A stretch of DNA of 64,000 bases from Halococcus salsus (lineage in GTDB: Archaea; Halobacteriota; Halobacteria; Halobacteriales; Halococcaceae): positions 1-64,000 of the forward strand of contig NZ_JAAAJC010000007.1 of assembly GCF_009900715.1 (NCBI RefSeq), in the 5' to 3' direction. This document shows, one piece after another, positions 19,193-59,991 of this stretch. The notes under the pieces are model-generated. The model was given only the letters and a program-made list of their open reading frames with translations. It made no database searches and was not told where the DNA came from. Within the stretch, counting starts at the first letter, position 1. Each line of letters starts with the position of its first letter. A program made the translations under genes and the position numbers.

Positions 19193-19287
19193 CCCCACGA
19201 ACTGGCGACGAACGCGTGGAGACCGCGACGAGGGATTCTCGACCCAACACCGATAAATTTTTGTTGATTTCAGAAACTTGAAAAAGC

Positions 19288-19518
19288 ATGTTCGCGCTTC
19301 AGATACCGGGCATCCCGGGCGGTCCAGAGGTCCTCGTCATCCTGCTCGTCCTCGTCGTGGTGTTCGGCCTCGTCGGCCGATGGGTCTACCGCGACGCGAA
19401 AAAGCAGGGGAGTGAGTGGGCGTGGCAGTGGGGCGTCGGTGTTGGCGTGCTCTTCCTGTTCGGTTTCGCCCCCGGACTGCTCGGCTTGGTCATCTATCTC
19501 CTCGTGGTGCGGCGATAG
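19288..19518 (+). CDS. 76-residue membrane protein, tandem copy 1
   Basis: Starts MFALQIPGIPGGPEVL and has two hydrophobic helices flanking WVYRDAKKQGSEWAWQWG, ending YLLVVRR. Function unknown; the layout resembles small two-helix bacterial membrane modules such as PLDc_N. A close paralog of identical length follows 49 bases downstream. The AT-rich stretch ATAAATTTTTG just upstream (19252-19262) is a likely promoter. Confidence 0.8.
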   Translation: MFALQIPGIPGGPEVLVILLVLVVVFGLVGRWVYRDAKKQGSEWAWQWGVGVGVLFLFGFAPGLLGLVIYLLVVRR

Positions 19519-38536: not shown

Positions 38537-38646
38537 TTTTTGCCGCCGCCGGTCGACTCGTGGCTATGCACGGTTCGCTCGCGGGACGGCTCGGCACACG
38601 TTCCGATTCCAGTGAGAAGCGTCGGGACGAGGGTCGACGGCGCTGA
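38537..38646 (+). other. Promoter and 26-codon upstream ORF coupled to polC
   Basis: A TTTTT run at 38537-38541 lies about 27 bases before ATG 38566, which opens a 26-codon basic frame (MHGSLAGRLGTRSDSSEK, then Arg-rich) ending TGA 38644-38646. The final A is also the A of the polC ATG. Leaderless translation of the short ORF followed by reinitiation at polC would fit; chance is not excluded. Confidence 0.4.
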
Positions 38647-41600
38647 TGCGGCCGGAGGACGAGCGCTACTTCGAACGGCTCGAATCCGGGCTCGACGAGG
38701 CGCTCGCGGTCGCCGGGACCGCGCGCGAGACGGGCGGCGACCCGACTCCCGAGGTCGAGATCCCGGTCGCGAAGGACATGGCCGACCGAGTCGAGAACAT
38801 CCTCGGCATCGAGGGCGTCGCCAGCCGGGTCCGCGAACTCGAAGGCCAGATGAGTCGGGAGGAGGCCGCGCTCGAACTCGCCGAGGACTTCGCCGAGGGC
38901 CGGGTCGGGGACTACGAGACGCAGGCAGGCACCATCGAGGGCGCGGTCCGGACCGCGGTCGCGCTCCTCACCGAGGGTGTGGTCGCCGCACCCATCGAGG
39001 GGATCGACCGCGTGGAGTTGGCGGACAATCCGGACGGAACCCAGTTCGTGCGGGTGTTCTACGCAGGACCTATCCGGTCGGCGGGCGGGACGGCACAGGC
39101 GCTCTCGGTGCTCGTGGCCGACTACACCCGGGCGCTGCTCGGGCTCGGTGCCTACGAGGCCCGCGAGGAGGAGGTCGAGCGTTACGCCGAGGAGATCGAC
39201 CTCTACGACTCGGAGACGGGGCTCCAGTACTCCCCGAAGGACAAGGAGACGAAGTTCATCGCCGAGAACTGCCCCGTGATGCTCGACGGCGAGGCGACGG
39301 GGCAAGAGGAGGTCTCGGGCTTTCGGGACCTCGAACGCGTCGGCACCAACAACCCCCGCGGCGGGATGTGTCTCGTGCTCGCGGAGGGGATCGCCCAGAA
39401 GGCCCCGAAGATCGAACGCTACACCGCCGAGCTCGACGAGGTCGACTGGCCGTGGCTCGACGACCTCATCGCGGGCACCATCGGGAAGAGCGACGCCGAC
39501 ACCGACGAGGAAGCCGACGAACCGAGCGAATCGGAGGAAGACGACGGGATAGACGAGGAGGGAACGGTCGAGAAGGCGGACGGCGAGCCCGATGGCCCCC
39601 TGCGACCCGAACCCGCGACCAAGTACCTCCGGGACCTGATCGCCGGCCGACCGGTGTTCGGCCACCCGAGTCGGCCCGGCGGATTCCGGCTCCGGTACGG
39701 CCGCTCGCGGAACAACGGGTTCGCGACCGCCGGGGTCCACCCCGCGACGATGCACCTCGTGGACGACTTCCTCGCGACGGGCACCCAGCTGAAGACCGAG
39801 CGACCGGGGAAGGCCGCCGGGGTCGTTCCGGTGGACTCGATCGAGGGCCCGACCGTCAGGCTGGCGAACGGCGAGGTCCGCCGGATCGACGACCCCGAGG
39901 AGGCCCTCGAATGCCGGAACGGCGTCGAGGCGATCCTCGACCTCGGGGAGTACCTCGTGAACTACGGCGAGTTCGTCGAGAACAACCACCCGCTCGCGCC
40001 GGCGTCGTACACCTTCGAGTGGTGGATACAGGAGTTCGAGGCGACCGAGGCGGACGTCAGAGCGCTCCGGGATTCGCCCCGGACCGACCTCGAAGCGCCC
40101 TCGCCGAGCGAGGCCATCGAGTGGGCCACCGAGTACGACGCGCCGCTCCATCCACAGTACACCTACTGCTGGCACGATATCTCGGTCGAGGCGTTCGAGG
40201 ACCTCGCCGAGGCGGTCGTCGCGGGCGAGTACGTCGAGGGGAGGCTGGCGCTCGAACCGCTCCCCGAGGTCCGGAAGACGCTCGAAGACCTGCTGGTCCC
40301 CCACTCCCAGGCCGGCGACGCGCTTCGGATCCCGAACTCCGCGGCGCTGGTGCGGTCGTTGGGTATCGACGAGGGGCTCGAACGCACCTGGGAGTCGCTC
40401 TCGACGGCGGCCCGCGAGTGGCCGAACGCCATGAAGGCCGCCCGCGAGGTCGCCCCGTTTTCGCTCCGCGAGCGTGCACCGACCCGGATCGGCGGGCGGA
40501 TGGGGCGGCCGGAGAAGTCCGAGAAACGCGAGCTCTCGCCTGCGGTCCACACCCTCTTTCCCATCGGCGAGGCCGGCGGCAGCCAGCGCGACGTGAGCGA
40601 GGCGGCCGACCACGTCCACGAGGGTTCTCGTGGAGCCGTCCCCGTCCAGGTCGGGCGCCGCGAGTGCGTCGGCTGTGGCACCCGAACCTACGAGACCCGG
40701 TGTCCCGACTGTGGGAGCCTCACCGAGCCGCGATACGAGTGTCCCGACTGCGAGATCGAGGTCGAACCCGACGAGTCCGGTCGGGCGGAGTGCCCGCGGT
40801 GTGAGGGCGAGGCGACGCCGACGGAGTGGCGGGTCGTCGATATCCGGGAGGAGTACGAGAGTGCCCTCCGCGAGGTCGGCGAGCGCGAGAACGCCTTCGA
40901 CATCCTGAAGGGGGTCAAGGGGCTGACCTCGGAGCTCAAAACACCCGAGCCGATGGAGAAGGGTGTCCTCCGGGCGAAACACGGCGTCTCGGCGTTCAAG
41001 GACGGGACCATCCGATACGACATGACGGATCTGCCCGTCACGAGCGTGAAGCCCGACGAACTCGACGTCTCGGTCGAGCAGTTCCGCGAGCTCGGCTACC
41101 ACGAGGACATGCAGGGCGACCCGCTCCGCCACGACGACCAGTTGGTGGAGTTGCGAGTTCAGGACGTGGTGCTCTCGGACGGCGCGGCCGAACACCTCCT
41201 CAAGACCGCCGACTTCGTCGACGACCTCCTGACCCAGTACTACGGTCTCGACCCGTTCTACGAGTTCGACGACCGCGACGATCTGGTCGGTGAGTTGGTC
41301 TTCGGGATGGCCCCACACACCTCAGCGGCGGTGGTGGGGCGCGTGATCGGCTTCACGAGCGCCGCTGTGGGTTATGCTCACCCTTATTTTCATGCATCAA
41401 AGCGCCGTAACTGTGATGGAGACGAAGATTGTGTCATGTTGTTGATGGATGGGTTGTTGAACTTCTCGAAGGCCTACCTCCCCGACAAGCGTGGCGGGCG
41501 GATGGACGCCCCGCTGGTGATGTCCTCGCGGATCGACCCCGCCGAGATCGACGACGAGGCGCACAACATGGACATCGTGGACTCCTACCCGAAGGCGTTC

Positions 41601-42158
41601 TACGAGGCGACCCTGGAGATGGCCGATCCTGGTGCCGTCGACATCGAGATCGCCGAGGCGAACGTCGGGACCGACGAGGAGTACACGGGCTTTCGCCACA
41701 CCACCGAGACCTCGAACCTCGCGCTCGGGCCGGCGCTCTCGGCCTACAAAACGCTGGGCTCGATGACCGACAAGATGGACGCCCAGCTCGAACTCGCCCG
41801 GAAGCTCCGAGCGGTCGATGAAACCGACGTCGCCGAGCGCATCATCGAGTACCACTTCCTGCCCGACCTCATCGGCAACCTCCGTGCCTTCTCGCGCCAG
41901 AAGACGCGGTGTCTCGACTGCGGGACGAAGTACCGCCGGATGCCGCTCTCGGGTGAGTGTCGGGAGTGCGGCGGCCGGGTCAACCTCACCGTCCACGAGG
42001 GCTCGGTGAAGAAGTACATCGGGACCGCGACCCGGGTCGCCGAGGAGTACGGCTGCCGGGACTACACCAAACAGCGCCTCGAAGTTCTAGAGATGACGCT
42101 GGAGAGTGTGTTCGAGAACGACAAGAACAAACAGAGCGGTATTGCGGACTTCATGTGA
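38646..42158 (+). CDS. polC: DNA polymerase D large subunit DP2 (intein-free)
   Basis: 1170 residues, full length without an intein. The start MRPEDERYFERLESGLDEAL is canonical. An acidic insert lies near 280-320, zinc clusters near 674-720 (CVGCGTRTYETRCPDC) and near 1088-1108 (CLDCGTKYRRM...CRECGG). The catalytic motif NCDGDED gives Asp924 and Asp926. The C terminus QSGIADFM is a PCNA-binding box. With DP1 it forms the archaeal replicative polymerase D. Codons 909-938 are strikingly AT-rich compared with the rest. Confidence 0.97.
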   Translation: MRPEDERYFERLESGLDEALAVAGTARETGGDPTPEVEIPVAKDMADRVENILGIEGVASRVRELEGQMSREEAALELAEDFAEGRVGDYETQAGTIEGAVRTAVALLTEGVVAAPIEGIDRVELADNPDGTQFVRVFYAGPIRSAGGTAQALSVLVADYTRALLGLGAYEAREEEVERYAEEIDLYDSETGLQYSPKDKETKFIAENCPVMLDGEATGQEEVSGFRDLERVGTNNPRGGMCLVLAEGIAQKAPKIERYTAELDEVDWPWLDDLIAGTIGKSDADTDEEADEPSESEEDDGIDEEGTVEKADGEPDGPLRPEPATKYLRDLIAGRPVFGHPSRPGGFRLRYGRSRNNGFATAGVHPATMHLVDDFLATGTQLKTERPGKAAGVVPVDSIEGPTVRLANGEVRRIDDPEEALECRNGVEAILDLGEYLVNYGEFVENNHPLAPASYTFEWWIQEFEATEADVRALRDSPRTDLEAPSPSEAIEWATEYDAPLHPQYTYCWHDISVEAFEDLAEAVVAGEYVEGRLALEPLPEVRKTLEDLLVPHSQAGDALRIPNSAALVRSLGIDEGLERTWESLSTAAREWPNAMKAAREVAPFSLRERAPTRIGGRMGRPEKSEKRELSPAVHTLFPIGEAGGSQRDVSEAADHVHEGSRGAVPVQVGRRECVGCGTRTYETRCPDCGSLTEPRYECPDCEIEVEPDESGRAECPRCEGEATPTEWRVVDIREEYESALREVGERENAFDILKGVKGLTSELKTPEPMEKGVLRAKHGVSAFKDGTIRYDMTDLPVTSVKPDELDVSVEQFRELGYHEDMQGDPLRHDDQLVELRVQDVVLSDGAAEHLLKTADFVDDLLTQYYGLDPFYEFDDRDDLVGELVFGMAPHTSAAVVGRVIGFTSAAVGYAHPYFHASKRRNCDGDEDCVMLLMDGLLNFSKAYLPDKRGGRMDAPLVMSSRIDPAEIDDEAHNMDIVDSYPKAFYEATLEMADPGAVDIEIAEANVGTDEEYTGFRHTTETSNLALGPALSAYKTLGSMTDKMDAQLELARKLRAVDETDVAERIIEYHFLPDLIGNLRAFSRQKTRCLDCGTKYRRMPLSGECRECGGRVNLTVHEGSVKKYIGTATRVAEEYGCRDYTKQRLEVLEMTLESVFENDKNKQSGIADFM

Positions 42159-58710: not shown

Positions 58711-59889
58711 ATGGACATCAGAGACCGCATCGCCCGCCGCTATCGTGCCGAGAACGGTCCGCAGGTGATCCGCGACCCCGAAGCGGTGAACCCCGCTGCC
58801 CACGTCCGGGACCCGGTCGGACGGGGGCCGGTGCTCGAACGGCTGCTCGACCGGCTCGACCCCGCGTTCGAGGGAGCGGTCCCGCCGAACACCTACGTCT
58901 GGGGACCGAAAGGGGCCGGGAAGTCGGCGCTCGTCACGGCGCTGTTCGGCGAGCTCCGCAGGCTGGAGGGCGGGTCGCGCGCGAGCATCCACACCGCCAC
59001 CCGGGTCGACGACGCCGCGACCGTCACCTTCGGCTACGTCGACGCCCGCCACGCGACCACCGAGTTCGCGCTCCGTCACGCCATCCTCGACGAACTGGTC
59101 GACGAACCGGTGCCGAAGAACGGCGTCAGCGCGAGCCGGTTCCGGTCGCTGCTCGCCGACCACGTCGCCTCGTCCGGTCGGCGGGCCGTGGTGGCGGTCG
59201 ACCATCTCGGTGACCCCGAGACGCCGTCGCTCCGGGCCGTCGCCGAGTTCCTCGACGGTGTCTCGGGGTCGGTGGCGTGGGTCGGCGTGGGACGAACGCC
59301 GCCCGAGGAGCTCGACCCGTCCCCGAGCGAGACGGTCGCGATCGACCTCGCGCCGCCGTACCTCCTCGCGGACATCCTCTCGGACCGGGCGTCGGCGGGC
59401 CTCGCGCGCGGCGCGCTCGACCACGAGAGCACCCGTCGGGTCGCCGAGTGGGCCGACGGGGACGCCCACGACGCGCTCGCCGCGGTGTTCGGGGCCGCGG
59501 TGGTCGCCGACGACGCCGGCGAGAACCGGATCGGTCCCGACGCGCTCGATGCCGGTATCGAGGGGGTCCCCCGACCGTGTACCGCGGTCGGCCGGATCCG
59601 CTCGCTCCCGGCGAACCGCCAGCGCGTCCTCCGGGAACTCTTCGACCTCGACGCCGCCGACCGGGAGTCGGTTCGAGCGGCGGCGGCCGGGGTGGCGGCC
59701 GCCGACACGGTGGGGCTGTCGGCGACGACGGTCGAACGAATTCTCTACGAGCTCGCCGATTCGGGGATCGTCCGACGGGTCTCCACCGACCGAACCGACG
59801 GGCTCGGACGCCCGCCGAGCGGGCTCGAACCGTGTTTTCCGGCGCTGGTCTTCCGCCGACTCTACGACCTCGCGTCGTCGACACCCTGA
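58711..59889 (+). CDS. Orc1/Cdc6-like AAA+ protein with degenerate Walker B
   Basis: 392 residues from ATG 58711. IRDRIARRYRAENGPQVIRD start, FEGAVPPNTYVWGPKGAGKS (Walker A), then VVAVDHLGD, where Walker B ends D-H instead of D-E. A lid and C-terminal winged helix (SATTVERILYELADSGIVRR) complete the Orc1/Cdc6 layout. It could bind origin DNA but the missing Glu suggests poor ATP hydrolysis. In haloarchaea many such paralogs exist with differing roles. Confidence 0.82.
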   Translation: MDIRDRIARRYRAENGPQVIRDPEAVNPAAHVRDPVGRGPVLERLLDRLDPAFEGAVPPNTYVWGPKGAGKSALVTALFGELRRLEGGSRASIHTATRVDDAATVTFGYVDARHATTEFALRHAILDELVDEPVPKNGVSASRFRSLLADHVASSGRRAVVAVDHLGDPETPSLRAVAEFLDGVSGSVAWVGVGRTPPEELDPSPSETVAIDLAPPYLLADILSDRASAGLARGALDHESTRRVAEWADGDAHDALAAVFGAAVVADDAGENRIGPDALDAGIEGVPRPCTAVGRIRSLPANRQRVLRELFDLDAADRESVRAAAAGVAAADTVGLSATTVERILYELADSGIVRRVSTDRTDGLGRPPSGLEPCFPALVFRRLYDLASSTP

Positions 59890-59912
59890 GAGAACGTGGA
59901 AAGTTTTATCAT

Positions 59913-59969
59913 GAACGACAGTATTCGTTACGGGTAATACGGCACCGCCAGTAAAGAACGGTGTCGTTC
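59913..59969. promoter_or_regulatory. Nested inverted repeats upstream of glpK
   Basis: GAACGACA (59913-59920) and TGTCGTTC (59962-59969) form 8-bp arms; inside, GTATT (59921-59925) and AATAC (59936-59940) form a second pair. They lie 23-79 bases before the glpK ATG, in the position of an operator or upstream regulatory region. The bound regulator is unknown. Confidence 0.45.
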
Positions 59970-59991
59970 GCCCGAAGCCGGGCACCTACTC

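What the first reader, a model, noticed from the sequence alone, without database searches (positions are those of the whole stretch)
41370..41460. Low-GC, recoded patch in polC at the catalytic motif where inteins insert
Bases 41371-41460 are 39/90 G+C (43 percent) while the gene around them is near two-thirds G+C. The codons switch to T/A endings (GGT TAT GCT CAC CCT TAT TTT CAT GCA TCA, four TTG Leu within ten codons), with normal usage returning at AAC TTC TCG. The patch encodes KRRNCDGDED: the catalytic Asp pair (924, 926) and the N/C junction (Asn922/Cys923). Inteins of polymerase D large subunits insert just before this Cys. Protein sequence is intact and no intein is present. The simplest explanation is a footprint of intein homing and later precise loss, or replacement by an intein-free allele from a lower-GC donor, with co-converted flanks; alternatively the target was recoded so it resists a homing endonuclease.
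Basis: partly seen in the sequence, partly recalled or inferred. Interest (0 to 1): 0.78.

Follow-up and report, generated by a model that had tools for sequence, protein, structure and literature searches.

The report
Rewritten scar at empty intein site
A 96-base stretch of an archaeal DNA polymerase gene, exactly where a selfish 'protein intron' inserts in sister species, keeps its protein sequence but has had its DNA spelling rewritten, and the same local rewriting recurs at empty versions of this site across the salt-loving archaea, apparently because the element's DNA-cutting enzyme keeps forcing that spot to be repaired.

Summary
Codons 907-938 of polC (41364-41459) are the most AT-rich 90 bp of the gene and of the window; GC3 falls from 0.89 to 0.25-0.4 with the protein intact. 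Three of ten congeners carry a 493-aa intein exactly at 922|923 (KRRN|CDGDED). The patch is not a private oddity. Across haloarchaea, vacant alleles of this site have the deepest GC3 minimum of the whole gene, centred on the insertion point; intein-bearing alleles have a much weaker one. Between close relatives that are both vacant, the patch differs twice as much as the rest at synonymous sites (0.34 v 0.18). The halves change independently, switching at the insertion point, and two cross-family pairs share a ~57-60 bp downstream flank that begins exactly there. The signal recurs at MCM-a and, weaker, polB YGD|TDS, but not at MCM-d, pol-IIb or Walker A of two control genes. Best explanation: recurrent homing-endonuclease cutting, with repair that rewrites one or both flanks of vacant sites. 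Why AT-rich versions persist (resistance to homing is my guess) is unproven. A single intein loss or a specific low-GC donor for this genome is not shown.

The parts
38646..42158 (+). polC, DNA polymerase D (Pol II) large subunit DP2, 1170 aa, intein-free
   Evidence: intact ORF; one copy in the genome; all 243 relatives searched have it
41364..41459 (+). low-GC3 patch, codons 907-938
   Evidence: GC3 minimum 0.25 v 0.89; lowest-GC 90 bp of gene and window
41364..41411 (+). upstream (N-extein) half of the patch, codons 907-922; shared with sister G002 (synonymous difference 0.20)
41412..41459 (+). downstream (C-extein) half, codons 923-938; differs from sister G002 at 0.64 of synonymous codons, closer to congeners G001/G005/G006
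41411..41412 (+). vacant pol-IIa intein insertion point, Asn922|Cys923
   Evidence: 493-aa intein at this point in G003, G004, G009; 64 of 134 fetched haloarchaeal polC genes carry an insert here
41498..41499 (+). vacant pol-IIb intein point (Gly951|Arg952); +1 residue is Arg, not the Ser found in most invaded alleles; no GC3 valley

Best explanation
The patch is a scar of repeated homing-endonuclease attack on the vacant pol-IIa intein site. Step 1 (shown): this site is occupied by an intein in congeners and in roughly half of the haloarchaeal polC genes fetched. Step 2 (inferred from established homing biology): inteins arriving by gene exchange cut vacant alleles at the site. Step 3 (shown as a pattern; mechanism inferred): repair replaces one or both flanks in discrete tracts of about 50-100 bp that end at the insertion point, so vacant alleles are rewritten in blocks, while the protein is held by purifying selection on a catalytic motif. 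Step 4 (inferred, weakest): in these GC-rich genomes the flanks that persist tend to be AT-rich, non-preferred versions, perhaps because they are cut less or recombine less well with incoming intein alleles. In this genome the upstream half is shared with its sister species; the downstream halves differ between the two, so one of them was rewritten after they split.
For: Vacant alleles (59 genomes, GC3>0.8) have the deepest GC3 minimum of the gene at codons 901-948; amino-acid-corrected, 8-codon windows reach z -6 to -8, and the vacant-minus-intein difference peaks at codon 921, z -10. Nearest vacant/intein+ pairs: 43 of 56 show the deeper dip in the vacant partner, Wilcoxon p 4e-6. Replicated in 20 further vacant named genomes. 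Close vacant pairs: synonymous difference 0.336 in the patch v 0.181 elsewhere, 11 of 21 in the top 5% of windows; intein+ pairs 0.243 v 0.196, 1 of 16. Phylogenetic signal collapses locally (r with rest of gene ~0.2 v 0.48). Left and right halves vary almost independently across 922|923 (r 0.14 v mostly 0.3-0.6 at other points; bootstrap p 0.01). Cross-family flank sharing starting exactly at 923: L069-L053 LOD 16.8, G005 (this genus)-G134 (another family, intein+) LOD 12.1, above all 36 control blocks, max 10.7. Same signal at MCM-a (0.413 v 0.229) and polB YGD|TDS (0.328 v 0.199); none at MCM-d or at Walker A of SRP54 and an XPD-like helicase.
Against: Shared tracts were found for only a few pairs, and no donor for this genome's patch. 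AT-ending codon choices are not more alike than at control sites, so there is no common haplotype. Intein-bearing alleles keep a weaker dip, mostly upstream, and at MCM-a the 8 invaded alleles dip as much as vacant ones. Mini-inteins and full inteins do not differ. The AT bias is not explained by conversion alone. No cleavage was tested. Some comparison sets are small (polB 43 genomes, controls 19 and 27).
Confidence: 0.62

Rival explanations
1. Selected recoding (synonymous armour): vacant alleles whose flanks differ most from the homing site, or from the donor's flanks, escape cleavage or strand invasion, so point mutations and imports that make the site AT-rich are favoured.
For: Valley only at sites whose +1 nucleophile is invariant (pol-IIa Cys, MCM-a Ser, polB Thr); absent where vacant alleles mostly carry a splice-blocking residue (MCM-d Pro/Ala, pol-IIb Arg/Gln/Lys). 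MCM-d sites with Pro are reported to be still cut (PMC10643990), so cutting alone does not make a valley. Homing depends on flanking homology length (PMC3024317).
Against: No position-specific avoidance of the codons used in intein+ alleles. The polC valley spans about -90 to +75 bp, wider than the 14-40 bp that homing endonucleases recognise, and these enzymes tolerate single synonymous changes (PMC3024317). Block-like, one-sided change needs conversion anyway.
Confidence: 0.3
2. Single event: an intein was gained and precisely lost in this lineage, or an intein-free allele from a low-GC lineage replaced the segment.
For: Congeners carry the intein; a congener's downstream flank matches an intein+ allele of another family; retention of a co-conversion tract after intron loss is known in plant cox1 (PMC3192709).
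Against: No donor above 83%; Haloquadratum only 76%; the two halves have different histories, so one event is not enough.
Confidence: 0.15
3. Slow-codon or mRNA effect at a catalytic motif, unrelated to inteins.
For: Intein+ alleles also show a weak upstream dip.
Against: Vacant/intein+ contrast; fast divergence instead of conservation; no dip at Walker A of SRP54 or the XPD-like helicase; no dip at other conserved windows of polC.
Confidence: 0.07
4. Assembly or contamination artefact, or chance.
For: The genome is a 30-contig draft.
Against: Mid-contig and in frame; sister G002 shares the upstream half; the pattern recurs in isolate genomes, some of them complete chromosomes.
Confidence: 0.02

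Closest known systems
Co-conversion tract of the angiosperm mitochondrial cox1 group I intron (PMC3192709)
   Same: Short exon tract abutting the insertion point, mostly third-position changes, downstream bias, up to 78 bp, kept after intron loss in at least one case.
   Different: Here the element is an intein in archaea, tracts lie on both sides and occur mostly in vacant alleles, turnover is recurrent across a whole class, and the tracts are AT-rich.
pol-IIa intein of haloarchaea (PMC4071816)
   Same: Same site, widespread, with full and mini forms and inferred losses.
   Different: This allele is vacant; in the passages read, the published survey counts and classifies inteins and does not describe flank recoding.
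MCM-a / MCM-d inteins of Haloferax (PMC10643990)
   Same: Homing, co-conversion of the flank and alleles resistant to invasion are described.
   Different: There resistance is by a +1 proline at MCM-d, and MCM-a is called conserved; a synonymous valley at MCM-a is not reported in the passages read.

Membership tests
Vacant pol-IIa intein site | Position identical to the insertion point in intein-bearing homologues | tested here: met
   Intein between Asn922 and Cys923 in G003, G004, G009 and about 60 others
Vacant pol-IIa intein site | +1 residue is Cys, Ser or Thr, so that an intein could splice | tested here: met
   Cys923
Vacant pol-IIa intein site | No intein remains | tested here: met
   Uninterrupted 1170-aa match
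Co-conversion tract of a homing element | Tract abuts the insertion point and is sharply different from the rest of the gene | tested here: met
   G000-G002 downstream half 0.64 v 0.16 elsewhere, upstream 0.20; match string
Co-conversion tract of a homing element | Tract matches the flank of an intein-bearing donor | tested here: inconclusive
   Met for congener G005 v intein+ G134 (LOD 12.1); for G000 itself no donor found
Homing-endonuclease-resistant allele | Site is not cut, or not converted, by the cognate enzyme | not testable with these tools
   needs a cleavage or homing assay
Import from a low-GC lineage | Near-identity to a low-GC relative | tested here: not met
   Haloquadratum 76%; best distant genomes 81-82%, about what an identical protein with AT-rich codons would give (the expectation is my estimate)

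The most novel reading that the evidence does not exclude
Haloarchaea carry a DNA-level arms race at intein sites: where the amino acid cannot change, vacant alleles are kept homing-proof by synonymous rewriting of the flanks, spread between lineages in short tracts; where a splice-blocking residue is tolerated, they use that instead and no rewriting is seen.
Probability: 0.33. Interest if true: 0.85.

Novelty: new variant of a known kind. Interest (0 to 1): 0.72.

Why it matters
Vacant intein sites are usually treated as blank. If they are a local hotspot of synonymous replacement, then (1) past homing attacks can be read from intein-free genomes, (2) dS, GC3 and phylogenies of replication genes such as polC and mcm are locally distorted, and (3) it becomes testable how a host escapes a selfish homing element when its target codons encode an essential active site.

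Tried and rejected
Low-GC donor: DNA search of 393 genomes of the phylum, 80 named genomes, plasmids and phages; none close. One shared AT-rich haplotype: AT-ending codon choice no more site-specific than in controls; a simple excess of near-identical 30-codon windows was not seen. Position-specific avoidance of intein-allele codons: negative. Mini v full intein: no difference. Cut-induced mutagenesis alone: disfavoured because MCM-d, reported to be cut although splice-blocked, shows no valley or clear excess divergence. GC3-saturated pairs gave trivial codon identity, so a frequency-weighted LOD was used.

Full report
Observation. polC (38646-42158, +) encodes an intact 1170-aa DP2. Codons 907-938 (41364-41459) are the lowest-GC 90 bp of gene and window, GC3 0.25 at worst against 0.89. 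The protein is unchanged.

The site. Ten genomes of the genus were compared. G003, G004 and G009 carry a 493-aa insert beginning CFHPETKLWV and ending LFVGQ, precisely between Asn922 and Cys923; G008 has an insert at the neighbouring pol-IIb point after Gly951. In the literature this is the pol-IIa allele, widespread in Halobacteria, with many mini-inteins and inferred losses (PMC4071816).

Class-wide pattern. All 243 genomes of the order that were searched have polC. I aligned 134 by codon: 67 vacant, 64 with pol-IIa, 7 with pol-IIb (4 of these with both). In GC-rich genomes the vacant alleles (59) have their deepest GC3 minimum of the entire gene at codons 901-948; invaded alleles (56) show a much weaker dip. 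Corrected for amino acid, the vacant residual runs from about -0.1 at -96 bp to about -0.28 near the site and back to zero by +84 bp; the difference between the two classes peaks at the site (z -10). Pairing each intein+ genome with its nearest unused vacant genome gives 43 of 56 in the same direction, p 4e-6, and 25 of 33 for closer pairs. In 73% of vacant genomes, against 25% of invaded ones, the patch is in the lowest 1% of windows. Twenty further vacant, named genomes repeat it. Not all vacant alleles have it: congener G007 does not.

How it changes. Between close relatives that are both vacant, the patch differs at 0.336 of synonymous codons against 0.181 elsewhere, often all or nothing (0.56 v 0.11 for L415-L082; 0.11 v 0.17 for L361-L054); intein+ pairs show little excess. 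Agreement with the rest of the gene falls from r 0.48 to about 0.2. The AT-rich runs are often one-sided and stop at the insertion point: 29 vacant alleles are low on both sides, 19 left only, 16 right only, 18 neither. Correlation between left and right is 0.14 at 922 and mostly 0.3-0.6 at other points (bootstrap p 0.01). In this genome the upstream half is that of sister G002 (0.20) while the downstream half differs at 0.64.

Tracts between lineages. A codon-frequency-weighted LOD looked for distant pairs sharing 20-codon blocks. The downstream block 923-942 gives the highest values: L069-L053 (different families, both vacant) 16.8, and G005 of this genus (vacant) with G134 of another family (intein+) 12.1. 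The best of 36 control blocks is 10.7. For G005-G134 the block just upstream scores -30 and the block just downstream -12.8, so the tract is about 60 bp and starts at the insertion point. That is the anatomy of a co-conversion tract; in plant cox1 such tracts are mostly downstream, 3 to 78 bp, and can outlive the intron (PMC3192709). The number of such clear cases is small.

Other sites. MCM-a (Walker A, K|S) shows the valley and excess divergence (0.413 v 0.229); polB YGD|TDS shows a weaker valley and 0.328 v 0.199. MCM-d and pol-IIb show no valley. Walker A of SRP54 and of the XPD-like helicase next to polC show neither signal. At MCM-d and pol-IIb most vacant alleles have a residue after the site that cannot splice (Pro/Ala; Arg/Gln/Lys), while at the three positive sites the residue is invariant. 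For MCM-d, Turgeman-Grott et al. report that proline blocks splicing but not cutting (PMC10643990). So cutting alone does not seem to be enough; the site must be one where homing can succeed, or where escape cannot be by amino acid. With five sites this is a lead, not a rule.

Interpretation. Shown: site identity, class-wide valley in vacant alleles, accelerated and block-like change, breakpoint at the insertion point, some interlineage tract sharing, controls negative. Inferred: that the cause is endonuclease cutting and repair, and that AT-rich flanks are retained because they hinder homing. Homing in haloarchaea works by homologous recombination and falls with shorter flanking homology, and single synonymous changes are said to be tolerated by the enzymes (PMC3024317), which makes many changes over a wider stretch a plausible requirement.

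Limits. Genomes are related and the vacant and invaded sets differ in make-up; pairing reduces but does not remove this. Loci were drawn partly by similarity to this genome. The tested collections lack population data. No enzyme test was possible. The literature search covered open-access papers only; I found no report of synonymous recoding at vacant intein sites, which is not proof that none exists.

Noticed in passing
   Followed up: partly
L150 (G000 contig C5, mcm) and L155 (contig C6, polB): The window's genome is also uninterrupted in mcm and polB, although congeners G001, G003, G004 and G006 have one or two mcm inteins.
   Followed up: partly
window 41379-41381 (polC codon 912): His912 is CAT in about 70% of both vacant and invaded GC-rich haloarchaeal alleles, although His is CAC in 95% of cases elsewhere in this gene; an upstream dip at codons 909-916 persists in invaded alleles and is unexplained.
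   Followed up: no
window 39486-39545 (polC codons ~281-300): The acidic linker of DP2 is the most divergent stretch between G000 and its sister G002 (31 differences in 16 codons).
   Followed up: no
window 19201-19340 and 59851-59970: Two other low-GC stretches (about 47-48% G+C in 90 bp).
   Followed up: no
L021 (G005) v L462 (G134): A vacant allele of this genus and an intein-bearing allele of another family share the 60 bp just downstream of the site almost exactly, and nothing on either side of it.
   Followed up: yes
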